DNA of 64,000 nt, taken from Candidatus Kryptonium sp. (GTDB lineage Bacteria; Bacteroidota; Ignavibacteria; Kryptoniales; Kryptoniaceae). The notes beneath the pieces are model-generated. The model saw only the letters and a program-made list of their open reading frames with translations. It did no database searches and had not been told where the DNA came from. The translations under genes were made by a program, and so were the position numbers. Positions 13,994-23,740 of this stretch are shown piece by piece (within the stretch, counting starts at the first letter, position 1; the number at the start of each line of letters is the position of its first letter). The stretch covers positions 310,001-374,000 of the forward strand of contig JANXBN010000001.1 in NCBI GenBank assembly GCA_025060635.1. The letters are read 5' to 3'.

Positions 13994-15034
13994 ATGGCGC
14001 ATTTAAATATAAATCAACTTCAGTTTGAGCAAGTCAAGGAGGTCATAAATAGATCGCAAAATTTCGTCATCACAACGCATGTCAATCCCGATGGAGATGG
14101 GCTCGGATGTGAAACGGCGTTTCTGCATTTCCTTGAAAAACTTGGAAAATCAGCAACGGTTATAAATGTCAGCGAAACACCAGATAACTACAAATTCCTT
14201 GATCCAGAGAATAAATTCGTCGTCTTTAACGAACAAAATTATGAACATGTTGAAAAAATTTTAAACGCAGATGTGATATTGATTTGCGATATGAATCAGT
14301 CGCATAGATTAAAAGCGATGGAAAAATATGTCCTTCAAAGCAGAGCTGTTAAAATTATAATTGATCATCACCTTGAGACGCAAAATTTCGCTGATTATTA
14401 TCTAATTGACATCAACTCTCCCGCAAGCGGTGAAATCGCATATAAACTTATAAAATTGTTTGATGAGGTTAAGATTGACAAAACAATTGCAGTTGGGCTT
14501 TACACTGCGATTATGACGGATACCGGTTCCTTTAGATTTCCGAGAACCGATTCAGATACACATCGCATTGTCGCTGAATTGATTGATGTTGGGGTAGATC
14601 CAACCGAAATTTATGATAAAGTTTATGAGCAAAGTTCCCTCGGGCGAATGAAACTTCTTGGCAAGTGTCTCTCCGAAATGCAAACAATGTATGATGGACA
14701 GCTTGGTTATATAGTTGTAACTCAAGAGATGTTGAAAAATTATAGTGTCAAGGAGTGGGAAACAGATGGATTTGTTCAGACAATTTTAAGTATCACAGGA
14801 ATTAAAGTAGCGATTTTTTTGCTTGAGCTTAAAGATGGGGTGAAGTTGAGCTTTAGGTCAAAAGGTGATATACCAATAAATGAACTTGCAAAGGAATTCG
14901 GAGGAAATGGACATAAGAACGCTGCTGGCGCTCGGCTTTACAATGTTTCCATTGAAGATATTTTAAAACAAGTTATTGAAAAGGCCGAAAAATATATTTA
15001 TTTTGCTGAAAAACAAATTGAGGTGATAAAATGA
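13994..15034 (+). CDS. nrnA: DHH/DHHA1 phosphoesterase, NrnA-like
   Basis: Bifunctional oligoribonuclease and pAp phosphatase of the NrnA type is the likely role: it would finish degradation of RNA to mononucleotides and remove 3'-phosphoadenosine 5'-phosphate. The DHH domain has HVNPDGDGLG near residue 30, a CDMNQSHR motif near residue 98 and IDHHLE near residue 120. The C-terminal DHHA1 domain has GGNGHKNAAG near residue 305. The 346-residue length is slightly above the usual 310-330. The stop overlaps the pepA start as ATGA, so the two are co-translated. The exact substrate is inferred. Confidence 0.8.
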   Translation: MAHLNINQLQFEQVKEVINRSQNFVITTHVNPDGDGLGCETAFLHFLEKLGKSATVINVSETPDNYKFLDPENKFVVFNEQNYEHVEKILNADVILICDMNQSHRLKAMEKYVLQSRAVKIIIDHHLETQNFADYYLIDINSPASGEIAYKLIKLFDEVKIDKTIAVGLYTAIMTDTGSFRFPRTDSDTHRIVAELIDVGVDPTEIYDKVYEQSSLGRMKLLGKCLSEMQTMYDGQLGYIVVTQEMLKNYSVKEWETDGFVQTILSITGIKVAIFLLELKDGVKLSFRSKGDIPINELAKEFGGNGHKNAAGARLYNVSIEDILKQVIEKAEKYIYFAEKQIEVIK

Positions 15035-16548
15035 AGTTGACATATTCAAAGGGGAAATTAAACACGGTAAAGGCGGACTCTTTAATTGTCTTGACATTTT
15101 CAGATAAAGATCTTTTGGCAAAAACCGTGAACAAACTTGATAAATATCTAAATGGACAGCTTAATGCTTTGGTTTCTGCTGGTGATTTCAAAGGGAAGGA
15201 GAAAGAGGTTGTGGTTCTTTATCCGACAAATTCCGATATGAAATCAAAGAGAGTGATCATCGTTGGACTTGGCGAAAGAGAAAAGATAACGCTTGAGAAA
15301 ATTCGTCGTTCCTGCGCAGTTGCTTCAAAGAAAGCACAAAGTTTGAAATCTGAAACAATAGCGATAGAATTTCCAGATTATTCATTGCTTAAAGATAAAA
15401 TCAACGAGGATCTCTCTTACATTGCGCAATCCGTGGCGGAAGGTTCAGTTTTGGCACTTTATAAATTTGATAAATATCTGACCAACGAGGAACAAAAAAG
15501 CCATAAAGTTAAAGAGGTAATTGTGTTTTCTGAAGAGGATTCAAAAGATATTAGGGAAGGTATAAGAGTTGCGGATATAGTTTGTAGTGCTGTTTATTTG
15601 GCTCGTGATCTTGCAAATGCCCCTGCAAATGAGATATATCCAGAAACTCTTGCTCAAGCTGCGATAAATTCTGGAAAAAAATATGGTTATAAAGTAAAGG
15701 TTCTTGGAAAGCCTGAGATTGAAAAGCTTGGCATGGGTGGATTGCTTGCTGTAAATTCTGGAAGCGCAAGACCACCGAGATTTATAATCATGGAATACAA
15801 AGGAAATCCGAGAAGCAAAGAGACATATGTAATTGCTGGCAAAGGAATAACATTTGATAGCGGTGGATTATCTATCAAACCAGCTCAGGGAATGGAAGAG
15901 ATGAAAATGGATATGTCAGGTGCAGCTGCAGTCATTGCAACGATGGAGGCAGTTGCGAGGTTAAAATTACCTGTTAATCTCGTCGGTCTTGTTCCAGCAA
16001 CTGAAAATATGCCCGGTGGTTCTGCTTATAGACCTGGGGACATAATAAGAACATACAGCGGGAAGACAATTGAGGTTATTAACACAGACGCTGAAGGTAG
16101 AATTATACTTGCAGATGCTCTCGGCTACGCTCAAAGATATAAACCAGCTGCTATAATTGACCTTGCAACTTTAACAGGCGCTTGCGTTGTCGCTCTTGGT
16201 TATTTTGCAACCGGCATGTTTGGAAACGATGAGAAACTTATGGAAGAGATTAAAAAAGCTGGAGAAAAGACATATGAACGCGTATGGCAAATGCCAACTT
16301 GGGATGAATACGATCAACTTATAAAAAGTGATGTAGCAGATGTCAAAAACTCCGGTGGAAGATGGGCAGGAGCAATAACCGCAGCAAAGTTTTTGCAAAA
16401 GTTTGTCGGGAATTATCCTTGGGTGCATCTTGATATTGCAGGGACCGCGATGCTTGATAAAGAATACGATTATCAACCCAAAGGTGGTTCTGGAGTAGGT
16501 GTTAGATTGCTCGTTGAATTTTTCAGGAACAAATCAAAGAAGAAATAA
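15031..16548 (+). CDS. pepA: leucyl aminopeptidase (M17 family)
   Basis: Cytosolic dimetal aminopeptidase that removes N-terminal residues from peptides. The C-terminal catalytic domain has the metal and catalytic motifs GKGITFDSGGLSIKP near residue 275 and the signature NTDAEGRIILADAL near residue 350. A less conserved macro-like N-terminal domain fills residues 1-170. At 505 residues it is full length. It overlaps the nrnA-like gene by four bases. M17 enzymes can also have cysteinylglycinase activity, which is notable because a cysteine synthesis cassette starts 124 bp downstream, but no functional tie is shown. Confidence 0.92.
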   Translation: MKLTYSKGKLNTVKADSLIVLTFSDKDLLAKTVNKLDKYLNGQLNALVSAGDFKGKEKEVVVLYPTNSDMKSKRVIIVGLGEREKITLEKIRRSCAVASKKAQSLKSETIAIEFPDYSLLKDKINEDLSYIAQSVAEGSVLALYKFDKYLTNEEQKSHKVKEVIVFSEEDSKDIREGIRVADIVCSAVYLARDLANAPANEIYPETLAQAAINSGKKYGYKVKVLGKPEIEKLGMGGLLAVNSGSARPPRFIIMEYKGNPRSKETYVIAGKGITFDSGGLSIKPAQGMEEMKMDMSGAAAVIATMEAVARLKLPVNLVGLVPATENMPGGSAYRPGDIIRTYSGKTIEVINTDAEGRIILADALGYAQRYKPAAIIDLATLTGACVVALGYFATGMFGNDEKLMEEIKKAGEKTYERVWQMPTWDEYDQLIKSDVADVKNSGGRWAGAITAAKFLQKFVGNYPWVHLDIAGTAMLDKEYDYQPKGGSGVGVRLLVEFFRNKSKKK

Positions 16549-16672: not shown

Positions 16673-17608
16673 ATGCAAAATTCAATTTTATCAAAAATCG
16701 GGAATACTCCGCTAATAAAGATAGACAAAATAAACCCATACTCAAAAAATATCTCAATCTACGCAAAAGCGGAGTGGTTCAATCCTGGGGGTTCGGTTAA
16801 AGACCGTCCAGCGCTTTACATGATAATGGATGGAATAAAGCGTGGACTTTTGACCAAAGATAAAATTATAATTGATGCAACAAGTGGGAATACGGGAATT
16901 GCTTATGCTATGATAGGCGCTGTTCTCGGTTATAGAGTTAAACTTGCCCTACCTTCTAACGCAAGTTTGGAAAGAAAGAAAATTCTCAAAGCTTACGGAG
17001 CTGAGCTAATTTTCACAGATCCACTTGAGGGGACTGATGGAGCACAGAAAGTTGTTAAGGAAATCGTAGAGAGAGAACCTGAACTTTATTTTTATCCAGA
17101 CCAATATAACAACGATGCAAATTGGCGTTCTCACTATGAGACGACGGCAGTTGAAATTATAAATCAAACGAATGGAAAAATAACTCATTTCGTTGCTGGA
17201 CTTGGGACTACTGGGACTTTCGTCGGCACCGCTAAAAGATTGAAGGAATTTAATTCAAAAATAAAAACGATCGCTGTCCAACCTGATTCGCCTCTTCACG
17301 GCATTGAAGGGTTAAAGCATTTACCAACCGCAATTGTGCCTGGAATTTTTGAACCTGAACTTGTTGATGAATTAATTGAGGTTTCAACTGAAGAAGCATA
17401 TGAAATGGTAAAATTGCTTGCGAAGGTTGAAGGTTTGTTTGTTGGAGTTTCCTCTGGAGCTGTAATGGCAGCGTGTTTGAAACTTGCGCAAAAAATTGAG
17501 GAGGGTCTCATCGTCACGGTTTTCCCCGATTCGGGATTCAAATATCTAAGCGAAAAATTTTGGGAAGAAACAAATTTTGTAAATACCGATGATAGAAATA
17601 TCAGATGA
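16673..17608 (+). CDS. cysM: CysO-dependent cysteine synthase (CysM type)
   Basis: PLP enzyme of 311 residues. The lysine that binds PLP lies in NPGGSVKDRPA, and the phosphate loop is TSGNTG. The C-terminal GFKYLSE segment and the HFVAGLGTTGTFVGT block resemble mycobacterial CysM, which uses the thiocarboxylate of the carrier protein CysO as sulfur donor instead of sulfide. Context is decisive: the next three genes encode a JAMM peptidase, a CysO-like carrier and a MoeZ-like activating enzyme. The gene overlaps the JAMM gene by 20 bases. In Mycobacterium the carbon acceptor is O-phosphoserine; whether that holds here is unknown. Confidence 0.85.
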   Translation: MQNSILSKIGNTPLIKIDKINPYSKNISIYAKAEWFNPGGSVKDRPALYMIMDGIKRGLLTKDKIIIDATSGNTGIAYAMIGAVLGYRVKLALPSNASLERKKILKAYGAELIFTDPLEGTDGAQKVVKEIVEREPELYFYPDQYNNDANWRSHYETTAVEIINQTNGKITHFVAGLGTTGTFVGTAKRLKEFNSKIKTIAVQPDSPLHGIEGLKHLPTAIVPGIFEPELVDELIEVSTEEAYEMVKLLAKVEGLFVGVSSGAVMAACLKLAQKIEEGLIVTVFPDSGFKYLSEKFWEETNFVNTDDRNIR

Positions 17609-18017
17609 AATAATTACGGAGATAAGATCGCACGCTGAAGAAACATATCCAGAAGAGTGTTGCGGTGTTCTGATTGGAAAGTTTGATGTTTTTCAAAAAG
17701 TTGTGTTTGAAATTTTAAGAATTGAAAACTCCAAAGAAACCGAGAGAAACAGGCGATATCTGATAAAACCGCAGGACTATCTTAAAGCTGAAAAGTACGC
17801 TAAAGAAAAAGGATACGATATAATTGGATTCTATCATTCACACCCCAACCACCCAGCGAAGCCATCTGAATATGATAGGGAGCATGCGTTTCCATTCCTA
17901 TCTTACATTATTGTTTCAGTTGAAAATGGGAGATCTAAAGAAGTTAACAGTTGGGTTCTAAGGGAAGACAGAAGCGAGTTTGATCCTGAGGAAATTGAAA
18001 TTAAAAATAAAATTTGA
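17589..18017 (+). CDS. mec: JAMM/Mov34 zinc peptidase (Mec-like)
   Basis: Small JAMM metallopeptidase of 142 residues. The zinc motif is HSHPNHPAKPSEYD near residues 82-95, and the catalytic glutamate is in the EECCGVLIG segment near residue 22. In Mycobacterium the homologue Mec+ releases cysteine from the CysO-cysteine adduct made by CysM. Here a second job is plausible: removing the extra C-terminal Ser of the neighbouring carrier protein to expose Gly-Gly. It overlaps cysM by 20 bases and is followed directly by cysO, so the stoichiometry of the cassette is probably linked by coupled translation. Confidence 0.85.
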   Translation: MIEISDEIITEIRSHAEETYPEECCGVLIGKFDVFQKVVFEILRIENSKETERNRRYLIKPQDYLKAEKYAKEKGYDIIGFYHSHPNHPAKPSEYDREHAFPFLSYIIVSVENGRSKEVNSWVLREDRSEFDPEEIEIKNKI

Positions 18018-18025
18018 GCGTTGAA

Positions 18026-18304
18026 ATGTCAGTGAAAGTTATGATCCCAACCCCGTTAAGACCATACACTGATAATAAAGATACAATTGAAGTTGATGGG
18101 CAAACTGTTAGAGAACTATTGGAAAACTTGGCAAATAGATATCCGCAATTGAAGCGGCATCTTTTTTCTGAGAATGGGAATTTGCGAAATTTTATAAACA
18201 TTTACATCAATGACGAAGATATAAGGTATCTTGAGGGTGATAATACAAAGTTAAAAGAAGGAGACATTGTTAGCATAGTTCCAGCGATTGCAGGCGGAAG
18301 CTAA
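18026..18304 (+). CDS. cysO: CysO-like ubiquitin-fold sulfur carrier, Ser-capped
   Basis: Ubiquitin-like sulfur carrier of 92 residues. The N-terminus MSVKVMIPTPLRP and the motif FINIYINDEDIRYLEG resemble mycobacterial CysO (residues about 1-13 and 57-72). The C-terminus reads VPAIAGGS: the usual final Gly-Gly is followed by one extra serine, then a stop. The thiocarboxylate forms on the last glycine, so the serine would have to be removed first. The ATG at 18026 is chosen because it gives the CysO-like N-terminus; an in-frame TTG at 18014 would add four residues. Confidence 0.87.
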   Translation: MSVKVMIPTPLRPYTDNKDTIEVDGQTVRELLENLANRYPQLKRHLFSENGNLRNFINIYINDEDIRYLEGDNTKLKEGDIVSIVPAIAGGS

Positions 18305-18350: not shown

Positions 18351-19538
18351 ATGTTCGGGCAAATTTTAAATCCAAGATCTATGAATTTAACAGATGATGT
18401 AGAATTAACACGAGAAGAATTTTTGAGATATGGTCGCCATCTTATAATGCCTGAGGTTGGGTTGGATGGCCAAAAGAGATTAAAATCTTCAAGTGTTTTA
18501 ATAGTTGGTGCAGGTGGACTTGGTTCTCCGCTCGCATTCTATCTTACTGCAGCTGGCGTTGGTAGAATTGGGATAGTTGATTTTGATGTCGTTGACCTAT
18601 CAAATCTTCAAAGACAGATAATTCACACGACGAAGGATGTGGGGAGATCAAAACTTGAATCAGCTAAGGAAAAACTTGAGGCGTTGAATCCAAATGTTGA
18701 GATTGAAACATATAATATGCGACTTACAAGCGAGAACGCATTTGAGATAATTGAGAATTACGATATAATTATAGATGGGACGGATAACTTTCCAACTCGT
18801 TATCTTGTGAACGATGCTTGTGTTATTTTGAAAAAACCGAATGTTTATGGAAGTATATTTAGATTTGAAGGTCAAGCGTCGGTTTTTTATTCTGTTATGG
18901 GCCCATGTTATCGTTGTCTTTATCAGGAGCCACCTCCTCCAGGATTAGTCCCAAGTTGTGCTGAAGGTGGTGTTCTTGGAGTTTTGCCAGGGATTATAGG
19001 GACAATTCAAGCACTTGAAGCGATAAAGTTAATTCTTGGCGTTGGAGAACCGTTGATTGGAAAACTACTTTTGTTTGATGCGCTGAAGATGAAATTTAGA
19101 GAGTTGAAACTTAGGAAGAATCCGCAATGCCCAATTTGTGGTGAAAATCCAACGATAAAAGAACTGATTGATTATGAAGCGTTCTGCGGAATCACACCTG
19201 AGCAAGCTTTGCGTGAGGCAGGGCTTGAGATAACACCTGAAGAATTGAGATCAAAACTTGAAAATGGTGAGGATATAATTTTGATAGATGTTCGTGAACC
19301 ACATGAGTATGAAATTAATAGAATATACGGAAGCAAGTTGATCCCTCTTTCAAAGTTACCTGAAAAAGTTAATGAACTTGATCAAACTCGTGAGATTGTG
19401 CTTTATTGCAAGATGGGTGGAAGAAGCGCAAGAGCTGTGCAGTTTTTAAGAGAGCTTGGTTTTACCAGGGTTAAAAATCTAGCTGGTGGGATTGACGCTT
19501 GGATTGAAAAAATTGAACCGAACATGCCGAAGTATTGA
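18351..19538 (+). CDS. moeZ: E1-like adenylyltransferase-rhodanese fusion (MoeZ type)
   Basis: Activates the carrier C-terminus as acyl-adenylate and delivers sulfur from its rhodanese domain to give a thiocarboxylate. The ThiF/MoeB domain has the ATP loop GAGGLGSPLA near residue 55 and two zinc cysteine pairs, CYRC and CPIC. A C-terminal rhodanese domain starts near residue 300 and has the persulfide cysteine in LYCKMGGRS. This fusion is the MoeZ architecture that serves CysO in Mycobacterium. No molybdopterin genes are nearby, so the cysteine role is preferred over MoeB. It lies 46 bp after cysO. Confidence 0.85.
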   Translation: MFGQILNPRSMNLTDDVELTREEFLRYGRHLIMPEVGLDGQKRLKSSSVLIVGAGGLGSPLAFYLTAAGVGRIGIVDFDVVDLSNLQRQIIHTTKDVGRSKLESAKEKLEALNPNVEIETYNMRLTSENAFEIIENYDIIIDGTDNFPTRYLVNDACVILKKPNVYGSIFRFEGQASVFYSVMGPCYRCLYQEPPPPGLVPSCAEGGVLGVLPGIIGTIQALEAIKLILGVGEPLIGKLLLFDALKMKFRELKLRKNPQCPICGENPTIKELIDYEAFCGITPEQALREAGLEITPEELRSKLENGEDIILIDVREPHEYEINRIYGSKLIPLSKLPEKVNELDQTREIVLYCKMGGRSARAVQFLRELGFTRVKNLAGGIDAWIEKIEPNMPKY

Positions 19539-21261: not shown

Positions 21262-21370
21262 AGTTGAAGTGAAGATATTTTATTTGTCTTTCTTAAAATA
21301 GTGCGAAATTAAAATTTTAAAAAATTTTGTGTAATTTATCAGCGACGCGCAAAACAAATTCACACAAGTG

Positions 21371-23740
21371 ATGAGAGCAATTTTAATAATTCTCTCAATT
21401 TTCATTTCCGCTGATTTCCTTTGCGCACAAAATATAACGAGGGAGAGGGGGAGGACGGATAAATTTAAAGATATCCTTGCGGTAAGGTGGCTTGATCCGA
21501 GATTTGGAGAGTTTCCTGACGCATCACTCGTTGATTTTAGTTTTCTTTTAGATTCACCCGCTGGAAAATATGGATTTGTAAGGGTTGGAGAAGATGGGCA
21601 TTTTTATTTTGAGAAAACAGGCAAGCGTGCAAGGTTTTGGGGAGTGACAATAGCAGGAAGCCATGTTGATATACCGAAAGAAAAAATTGAAACTGTAGTG
21701 GAGGTGCTTGCGCGCGCTGGATGCAACATAATTAGATTACACGAACTTGACAACCGAGGCGGTGAAAAATTTGGCATCGTGAGAAGAAATGTAATTGACG
21801 AAGCTCATCCAAACGAAAATAATTCAAGAAATCTTGACAAGGAATATCTTGACAAAATTGATTATTGGATTTATCAAGCACAAAAACGCGGAATTTATAT
21901 CTATCTTGTCCTTCGTGCATATAGAACTTTCAAGGTCGGCGATGGAATTTACGGAGCTGAAAAAATGGAACGAAAAGGTTCACCATATGGGCTTTTTGAT
22001 GAAAAAATGATTGAACTACAAAAAGAATTTATTGACAATTTTCTTTTTAAGCATGTGAATCCATACACAGGTAAACCGAACGGTTTAAATCCGGCGGTTG
22101 CAATGATTGAACTTATAAACGAAGATAGTTTTTTCTTCCAGTATGATAAACTTGATCAAATGATTGAGCCATATAAATCAAAATTTTTGAAGATGTGGGT
22201 TCAGTTTCTTCAAAAGAAATATGGAAACACCGATAACTTGAGAAAAGCATGGACCACGAAAGATGGTTTCTCCGTTCTTTCAGACGATGAGTCAATTGAA
22301 ATGGGGAAAGTTGATTTCCCAAAGTTTAAAATTAAGAAATTCACAGATCTTAATGAAGATAAATCTTCACGGCTTGAACATCCGCTGAGACAAAAGGATG
22401 GAGTTGAGTTTTTGATGTCGCTTCAGATGAAGTTGTTTAAAAGTTTTAAAGAGTTCATTCGTTCAAAAGGTTGCCCAATACCTTTGACAGCAACTGTTAA
22501 CAGCGAGTTTATAAATGATACCTACACGGTCGCAGCTGAACTTGATTTCATAGGACAAAATATGTATATGGATCATCCATCCTTTGAAGTTGGAAAGGAA
22601 TGGGTTGGATTTCCAGTTTTCAAAAATGAGAACTATTTAAAAAGAAATGATAGGTGGAGTTTTCCTGTTTATTCAAGTTTTTACGCGTGGGAAGGGAAAC
22701 CAATTGTAATTCGCGAATGGGCCTTATGTTATCCAAATGAATATAGAGCTTCAAGTTTAATTCATATCGCTGTTTATTCGCTGCTTCAGGATTATGATGC
22801 CGTTATTTACTTTGCCTTCTATACTTGGGGTGATGTTAACATTTGTTCGCCATTTGGATTGCAGTCCGACCCAACAAGATGGGGATTGTTTGGGTATGCC
22901 GCGAAAATTTTTATTAACGGTGAAATAAAACCATTTCAGAAAAAATTGAATGTATGTTTTTATCCAGAGGATTTGAAAATATGGGCTGATTGGTGGAGCA
23001 AAGTTTATAAGCTTTCTAAAAATTTCAAATTGAGAAACAAAGTTGTTGAGAAATATAACCTTGCGAACTCGGATGAGATTAATATCTTCGCAAGAGATGT
23101 TTTTAAAAATGGATCTATTTATAAGTTCATTGATTCGCTCGTTAATCTAGCAAACGGCGAGGTTAAAATTGACTCTGTGAATGGAACTTTGCTTGTTGAT
23201 TCAAAGTATTTTAAATCGCTCGCAGGAGAAATTGACACATCAAAAGTTTATGAATTGGGCAAGTTTAAGATTAAAACAAGTTCCCCTGTTTCAGCAATTG
23301 TTTTTGCAAGTTTGGACAATTTTGCATTAGATAGTTCAAACAAAATCGCAGTTAAAGTTGTAACCGTGGCTAAAAATAGAGGGCAGGTTTTTGAAAAAGT
23401 AGAGGATAGAAAATTTATTTTAAGAAATCAGGGCAGTGCACCTGTTCAAACACACGGTGAAAAATCTGATTCAGGAGTTGAGATATGGATCAGCGATAAA
23501 AGAATTTTGAAATGCTTTATGAGAAATGGTAGTTTTGAAGTTTTGATTGACAACAAAACAAAACGAGTTTTCATATTTTGCGATACACCGAATATAAAAT
23601 TCAAAATACACAATCACTTTTTCAGGGTCGGTAAAATTACGAGGTTTTTCCAGGAAATTGGTGGCGAAGATCGTGGAAAGATAGGTGAAAATGGGGAATT
23701 TGTTTATCCGGGGTATTCAAAATATGTGATGATTTATTAA
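21371..23740 (+). CDS. secreted glycoside hydrolase-like protein, clan GH-A type
   Basis: Exported protein of 789 residues with a signal peptide ending near FLCAQ. Residues ~80-500 look like a clan GH-A TIM barrel: RFWGVTIAG, NIIRLHELDN, a proposed acid-base glutamate in MIELINEDS (about residue 252) and a proposed nucleophile in IVIREWALCYPNE (about residue 450). Both are preceded by strand-like hydrophobic stretches, as expected at strands 4 and 7. Residues 560-789 form a beta-rich region of unknown type. The substrate cannot be told. The ATG at 21371 is preferred over a GTG three bases earlier. There is no polysaccharide utilisation cluster around it. Confidence 0.65.
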   Translation: MRAILIILSIFISADFLCAQNITRERGRTDKFKDILAVRWLDPRFGEFPDASLVDFSFLLDSPAGKYGFVRVGEDGHFYFEKTGKRARFWGVTIAGSHVDIPKEKIETVVEVLARAGCNIIRLHELDNRGGEKFGIVRRNVIDEAHPNENNSRNLDKEYLDKIDYWIYQAQKRGIYIYLVLRAYRTFKVGDGIYGAEKMERKGSPYGLFDEKMIELQKEFIDNFLFKHVNPYTGKPNGLNPAVAMIELINEDSFFFQYDKLDQMIEPYKSKFLKMWVQFLQKKYGNTDNLRKAWTTKDGFSVLSDDESIEMGKVDFPKFKIKKFTDLNEDKSSRLEHPLRQKDGVEFLMSLQMKLFKSFKEFIRSKGCPIPLTATVNSEFINDTYTVAAELDFIGQNMYMDHPSFEVGKEWVGFPVFKNENYLKRNDRWSFPVYSSFYAWEGKPIVIREWALCYPNEYRASSLIHIAVYSLLQDYDAVIYFAFYTWGDVNICSPFGLQSDPTRWGLFGYAAKIFINGEIKPFQKKLNVCFYPEDLKIWADWWSKVYKLSKNFKLRNKVVEKYNLANSDEINIFARDVFKNGSIYKFIDSLVNLANGEVKIDSVNGTLLVDSKYFKSLAGEIDTSKVYELGKFKIKTSSPVSAIVFASLDNFALDSSNKIAVKVVTVAKNRGQVFEKVEDRKFILRNQGSAPVQTHGEKSDSGVEIWISDKRILKCFMRNGSFEVLIDNKTKRVFIFCDTPNIKFKIHNHFFRVGKITRFFQEIGGEDRGKIGENGEFVYPGYSKYVMIY

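What the first reader, a model, noticed from the sequence alone, without database searches (positions are those of the whole stretch)
18284..18304. CysO carrier is capped by an extra C-terminal serine
The protein ends AIAGGS, not AIAGG. An E1 enzyme needs a free Gly-Gly end. The adjacent JAMM peptidase could remove the serine, so the same peptidase may both mature the carrier and release cysteine. Sulfur carriers with C-terminal extra residues trimmed by JAMM proteases have been described for methionine and siderophore-like pathways, but a CysO version would be new to me.
Basis: partly seen in the sequence, partly recalled or inferred. Interest (0 to 1): 0.65.

Follow-up and report, generated by a model that had tools for sequence, protein, structure and literature searches.

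The report
Capped sulfur carrier needing protease trimming
A small bacterial protein that carries sulfur for making cysteine is built with an extra residue covering its working end, and a survey of relatives shows that almost all of them are covered this way or fused to the next enzyme, so the neighbouring protease very probably has to cut them free before they can work.

Summary
The carrier (18026-18304 +) ends AIAGG-S-stop, and six other species of its genus also have residues after GG (N, N, N, N, I, NFQEKIF), so it is no sequencing error. It lies in a four-gene operon: cysteine synthase, intact JAMM protease, carrier, E1-rhodanese. The genome holds no other cysteine synthase, ThiS-type carrier or Prok-JAB gene, and no CysE above its cut-off.

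The survey goes further than the finding. Of 121 distinct JAMM-linked carriers, 113 do not end in GG. In 53 the carrier is fused in frame to the E1, with Ala-Gly-Gly invariant before a disordered linker. In 60 a tail follows, usually 1-3 residues. Only 8 end in free GG. Fusion state changed at least 10 times on the E1 tree.

Best reading: carriers are made as precursors, and the JAMM cuts after GG, the position it also cuts to release cysteine from CysO-Cys. Trimming itself is inferred, not shown.

Capped carriers with a required JAMM are already published (PtmS2/PtmS3 in Streptomyces, QbsE), as is this operon type (2006). The system is a variant of a known kind; the widespread carrier-E1 polyprotein is its least documented part.

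The parts
16673..17608 (+). Cysteine synthase (CysM/CysK family, PLP-dependent), the only one in the genome
   Evidence: PALP 243 bits; passes cysKM subfamily cut-off (349.2 against 344.15); 37% identical to M. tuberculosis CysM
17589..18017 (+). JAMM/MPN+ metalloprotease, Mec+-like, proposed to trim the carrier and release cysteine
   Evidence: Prok-JAB 91.9 bits; E23, H83, S84, H85, S93, D96 invariant in 48 homologues; AlphaFold pLDDT 94; nearest solved folds 2kks, 2kcq and the JAMM1-SAMP2 complex 5lda
18026..18304 (+). CysO-type sulfur carrier, precursor form ending AIAGG-S
   Evidence: ThiS family; aligned end to end with CysO; invariant AGG near the end
18293..18298 (+). Gly-Gly codons (GGC GGA): future C-terminus after trimming
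   Evidence: AGG invariant in 48 carrier-E1 fusions although followed by a variable linker
18299..18304 (+). Serine cap (AGC) and stop codon (TAA)
   Evidence: Read directly; a cap is present in all 7 genus members
18351..19538 (+). E1-like adenylyltransferase with C-terminal rhodanese domain (MoeZ/MoeBR type)
   Evidence: ThiF 295 bits, rhodanese 79 bits; fused to the carrier in sister families

Best explanation
The carrier is made as an inactive precursor whose Gly-Gly end is covered by one serine. The adjacent JAMM protease cuts the Gly91-Ser92 bond. The E1-rhodanese then adenylates Gly91 and turns it into a thiocarboxylate, the cysteine synthase joins that sulfur to an activated serine to give carrier-Cys, and the same JAMM cuts the Gly91-Cys92 bond to free cysteine and regenerate the carrier. 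The cap can be tolerated because GG-Ser is the oxygen analogue of the GG-Cys product that a Mec+-type JAMM removes anyway; for such an enzyme any short tail, or even a fused E1, is just another residue after GG. Shown here: the cap, its persistence in the genus, the operon, the intact JAMM motif, one copy of each part, the association with JAMM, and repeated fusion and splitting. Inferred: the cleavage, its order, the sulfur chemistry and the double role of one enzyme.
For: Cap in all 7 genus members. 113 of 121 JAMM-linked carriers are capped or fused. JAMM motif strict in 134 of 136. Only one Prok-JAB, one cysteine synthase and one ThiS-type carrier in the 97%-complete genome, and no CysE above cut-off. 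All 10 genomes of the phylum sample with a fused carrier but no JAMM in the 1.5-2.5 kb fetched around it carry a Prok-JAB above cut-off, several of them 3-5 kb away on the same contig. In 48 fusions AGG is invariant and the AlphaFold model has pLDDT under 50 for residues 89-99, an exposed flexible site. Two carriers encode GG-Cys-stop, literally the CysO-Cys sequence. Precedents: loss of the JAMM abolishes product made with capped carriers (PMC6006322); MoaX is cut at GG|S (PMC4326299); Mec+ hydrolyses the CysO-cysteine adduct (PMC3227635).
Against: No cleavage was measured. Eight JAMM-linked carriers in the phylum end in free GG, as does M. tuberculosis CysO, so JAMM does not exist for trimming alone. 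Carriers without a JAMM nearby are also often tailed (27 of 43), although most of those genomes hold a JAMM elsewhere. Another protease could trim: MoaX is cut by an unidentified one. Substrate specificity of the cysteine synthase is unknown.
Confidence: 0.8

Rival explanations
1. The serine is removed by some other, general protease or carboxypeptidase, and the JAMM only releases cysteine from carrier-Cys.
For: MoaX of M. tuberculosis is cut at GG|S by a protease not yet identified (PMC4326299). Free-GG carriers also keep a JAMM, so its conserved job need not be trimming.
Against: Capped or fused carriers go with a JAMM in the same operon (113 of 121) or genome. In Streptomyces loss of the JAMM abolished product made with capped carriers (PMC6006322). 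A general carboxypeptidase cannot easily release an E1 fused after GG.
Confidence: 0.1
2. The carrier is a ubiquitin-like modifier attached to other proteins, with the JAMM as deconjugase, rather than mainly a sulfur donor for cysteine.
For: The carrier passes the SAMP1 model (62.1 against cut-off 60) and the JAMM resembles desampylase; the JAMM1-SAMP2 complex 5lda is a close fold.
Against: The JAMM is below the desampylase cut-off (83 against 130). The genome's only cysteine synthase heads the operon and stays with it across phyla. Both roles could coexist.
Confidence: 0.07
3. The extra residue is a neutral accident: the carrier works with serine in place, or is adenylated on the serine.
For: The residue itself is unconstrained (R, A, S, N, C, I and others).
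Against: Tail length is strongly constrained to 1-3 residues, AGG stays invariant inside fusions where it cannot be a free end, and E1 enzymes of this family act on the C-terminal glycine (PMC3227635).
Confidence: 0.03

Closest known systems
CysO-CysM-Mec+-MoeZ cysteine pathway of Mycobacterium tuberculosis
   Same: Homologous carrier, JAMM, cysteine synthase and E1-rhodanese
   Different: M. tuberculosis CysO ends in free GG and its E1 gene (Rv3206c) lies elsewhere; here the carrier is capped, all four genes form one operon, and sister families fuse carrier to E1
QbsE/QbsD of thioquinolobactin synthesis and PtmS2/PtmS3 with PtmS1 of Streptomyces (PMC6006322)
   Same: Sulfur carriers with residues after GG (PtmS2 MV, PtmS3 C) that depend on a JAMM protease
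   Different: Shown for secondary metabolites; here the operon points to cysteine itself
Operon class 4c of Iyer et al. 2006 (PMC1779556)
   Same: ThiS/MoaD-like carrier, JAB, E1-rhodanese and cysteine synthase in one neighbourhood
   Different: In the passages read, the 2006 paper names fusions of Ub-like domains to ThiF and to sulfite reductase, but not the CysO-GG-E1-rhodanese polyprotein or the caps
MoaX, the MoaD-MoaE fusion of M. tuberculosis (PMC4326299)
   Same: Carrier fused to its partner and cut right after GG, before a serine
   Different: Molybdopterin pathway, protease unknown, partner is MoaE rather than an E1

Membership tests
CysO/CysM/Mec+ cysteine pathway | Carrier homologous to CysO with GG motif | tested here: met
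   67 bits to 3dwg_C, aligned 1-91 to 1-93
CysO/CysM/Mec+ cysteine pathway | JAMM/MPN+ protease with intact metal site encoded alongside | tested here: met
   ExnHSHPx6SxxD; catalytic residues invariant
CysO/CysM/Mec+ cysteine pathway | Cysteine synthase in the same operon | tested here: met
   16673-17608; only cysteine synthase in genome
CysO/CysM/Mec+ cysteine pathway | Rhodanese-bearing E1 activating the carrier | tested here: met
   18351-19538, ThiF plus rhodanese; gene presence only, activation itself not tested
CysO/CysM/Mec+ cysteine pathway | Free C-terminal GG as encoded, as in M. tuberculosis | tested here: not met
   Ends GGS; most relatives capped or fused. Not treated as defining, because it varies within the family
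CysO/CysM/Mec+ cysteine pathway | O-phosphoserine specificity of the synthase | tested here: inconclusive
   Lys at the position aligned with M. tuberculosis Arg220 (role of Arg220 from memory); no CysE above cut-off
Capped sulfur carriers (QbsE, PtmS2/S3 type) | One or more residues after GG, JAMM gene beside it | tested here: met
Capped sulfur carriers (QbsE, PtmS2/S3 type) | JAMM removes the cap | not testable with these tools
   Needs biochemistry
SAMP modifier / desampylase system | Matches SAMP1 model | tested here: met
   62.1 bits against cut-off 60
SAMP modifier / desampylase system | JAMM matches desampylase model above cut-off | tested here: not met
   83.4 bits against 130
SAMP modifier / desampylase system | Covalent carrier-protein conjugates | not testable with these tools
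   Needs proteomics

The most novel reading that the evidence does not exclude
Across several phyla the cysteine carrier is made as a locked precursor: either with a 1-3 residue cap that mimics the carrier-Cys product, or as a carrier-GG-E1-rhodanese polyprotein. One JAMM cuts the same Gly-X position both to unlock the carrier (or split the polyprotein) and to release cysteine, so the pathway cannot start unless its last enzyme is present. Carriers that encode GG-Cys-stop are born as the pathway's own final intermediate.
Probability: 0.4. Interest if true: 0.58.

Novelty: new variant of a known kind. Interest (0 to 1): 0.42.

Why it matters
Eukaryotic ubiquitin and its relatives are made as capped or fused precursors that proteases must open; here the same arrangement appears widely in a bacterial amino-acid pathway. 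It suggests that a JAMM that cuts after Gly-Gly removes the evolutionary pressure to end exactly at GG, which would explain why carriers switch so often between cap and E1 fusion. It also warns annotators that CysO homologues may be hidden at the front of proteins annotated as MoeB or ThiF.

Tried and rejected
Sequencing error or frameshift: rejected, since six sister species are also capped, with varied stop codons. Absolute rule that JAMM-linked carriers are always capped: rejected by 8 free-GG cases in the phylum sample; my first, narrower sample had shown none. Read-through from carrier into E1 in the window: rejected, different frames and 46 bp apart. Fused carriers without a nearby JAMM looked like counter-examples, but those genomes have a JAMM elsewhere; the three genomes without one above cut-off are a contig-edge case, a draft of 1.6 Mb and a short-contig draft. 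Second PF02597 hit in the genome is part of a RelA/SpoT protein. The original CysO/Mec+ paper was not held; one paper hit on 'CysO' and 'JAMM' was an unrelated gyrase paper. Promoter scan gave nothing above chance.

Full report
Observation. The window encodes a 92-residue ThiS-fold carrier at 18026-18304 whose last codons are GCA GGC GGA AGC TAA, that is A-G-G-S-stop. The carrier matches PF02597 and aligns along its length with solved CysO chains, which end at GG.

Setting. The genes run CysM-like cysteine synthase (16673-17608), JAMM protease (17589-18017), carrier, and E1-rhodanese (18351-19538), all on the + strand. The JAMM has the full motif, folds confidently (pLDDT 94) and resembles 2kks, 2kcq and P. 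furiosus JAMM1, which was solved with its ubiquitin-like partner. In the 97%-complete genome there is one Prok-JAB gene, one real ThiS-type carrier (the other hit is RelA/SpoT), one cysteine synthase (other PALP proteins are threonine synthase and a TrpB-like enzyme) and no CysE above the curated cut-off. This points to the carrier route as the cell's way to make cysteine; that last step is inference.

The genus. All six sister species have residues after GG: N, N, N, N, I and NFQEKIF. Their stop codons differ, so the cap is not an assembly error.

Sister families. Elsewhere in the same order and class, and in Acidobacteriota, Calditrichota, Chloroflexota, Gemmatimonadota and a groundwater MAG labelled Euryarchaeota, the carrier is the first domain of a protein of about 480-510 residues: carrier-GG-linker-E1-rhodanese. 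In 48 aligned fusions Ala89-Gly90-Gly91 is invariant while the next residues vary. In the model of one fusion, residues 89-99 have pLDDT under 50: an exposed flexible joint that starts at GG. A motif kept without exception in the middle of a chain, beside a disordered joint, is what a cutting site that becomes a functional end should look like.

Counts. Among 165 distinct carriers, 121 have a JAMM within 1.5 kb on the same strand: 53 fused to E1, 58 with short tails, 2 with long tails, 8 with free GG. Carriers without a nearby JAMM include 16 free GG, mostly MoaD-like proteins. Tails are 1-3 residues in 42 of 60 unfused cases, against 9 of 77 for the distance to the next in-frame stop beyond the real stop (p = 1.5e-12). 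The rows are related, so these p-values are too small, but the contrast is large. The sample was drawn by similarity to the query and is not random over bacteria.

Changes on the tree. On an E1 tree of 116 rows, fused and unfused changed 17-18 times by parsimony, and at least 10-12 times if only well-supported branches are trusted; free GG needs 3 changes. These were quick trees. The direction of change is not known.

JAMM elsewhere. Ten genomes with a fused carrier and no JAMM in the 1.5-2.5 kb fetched around it (G450, G334, G197, G204, G399, G301, G159, G350, G103, G342) all have a Prok-JAB above cut-off, in several cases 3-5 kb away on the same contig. Exceptions among tailed or fused carriers are a contig-edge case (G018) and two drafts (G456, G468). 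Five genomes whose only carrier hit is MoaD-like with free GG have no JAB above cut-off (G050, G032, G228, G148, G381); a sixth, G280, has a 35-bit hit inside a 795-residue frame.

Mechanism. Mec+ in M. tuberculosis hydrolyses the CysO-cysteine adduct (PMC3227635). After rearrangement that adduct is CysO with one extra C-terminal cysteine (my knowledge of the pathway). CysO-Ser is its oxygen analogue, and two relatives even encode GG-Cys-stop (L077, L158). An enzyme built to remove one residue after GG should remove a serine too. This gives a simple reason why caps are tolerated and short. Cleavage, order of steps and dual use of one enzyme remain inferred.

What is known. Iyer et al. 2006 listed this operon class and suggested that JAB could free fused carriers (PMC1779556). 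The 2018 thioplatensimycin paper described carriers capped with MV and C in Streptomyces, cited QbsD as the model protease, and showed that the JAMM mutant loses product (PMC6006322). MoaX is cut at GG|S and this is needed for activity (PMC4326299). I found no description of the CysO-GG-E1-rhodanese polyprotein in the papers I could search, which excludes most subscription literature.

Verdict. The serine cap is real, conserved in kind and very probably trimmed by the JAMM. The system is a variant of a known kind. The part most worth following is the widespread alternation between cap and E1 fusion.

Noticed in passing
L094:5001-5513 and L097:5001-5513: CysO-type carrier followed after GG by a NIL domain (PF09383) in one chain, with a JAMM gene about 2.3 kb away: another kind of fusion that would need cutting.
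   Followed up: partly
L077:5001-5279 and L158 (carrier on - strand, 2496-2770): Carriers encoded as ...AIAGG-C-stop, the same sequence as the CysO-cysteine adduct.
   Followed up: partly
L162, L164-L167: Carrier at the C-terminal end of a protein of about 690 residues, with free GG; a weak sulfite/nitrite reductase match (26.3 bits, just below cut-off) in L162.
   Followed up: partly
L031, L172-L174, L177: A second, diverged carrier paralogue (AVSGG) in family f6 genomes with short tails (INN, IN, VY) and no JAMM, E1 or CysM gene in the stretch fetched.
   Followed up: no
G301:C48, G399:C236, G159:C11, G350:C61: Two Prok-JAB genes about 2 kb apart, on the same contig as the fused carrier in the first three.
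   Followed up: no
window 15031-16548: M17 leucyl aminopeptidase directly upstream of the operon, same strand; relation to the pathway unknown.
   Followed up: no
window 21368-23740: 790-residue protein with no Pfam match at E 0.001, glycosidase-like by eye.
   Followed up: no
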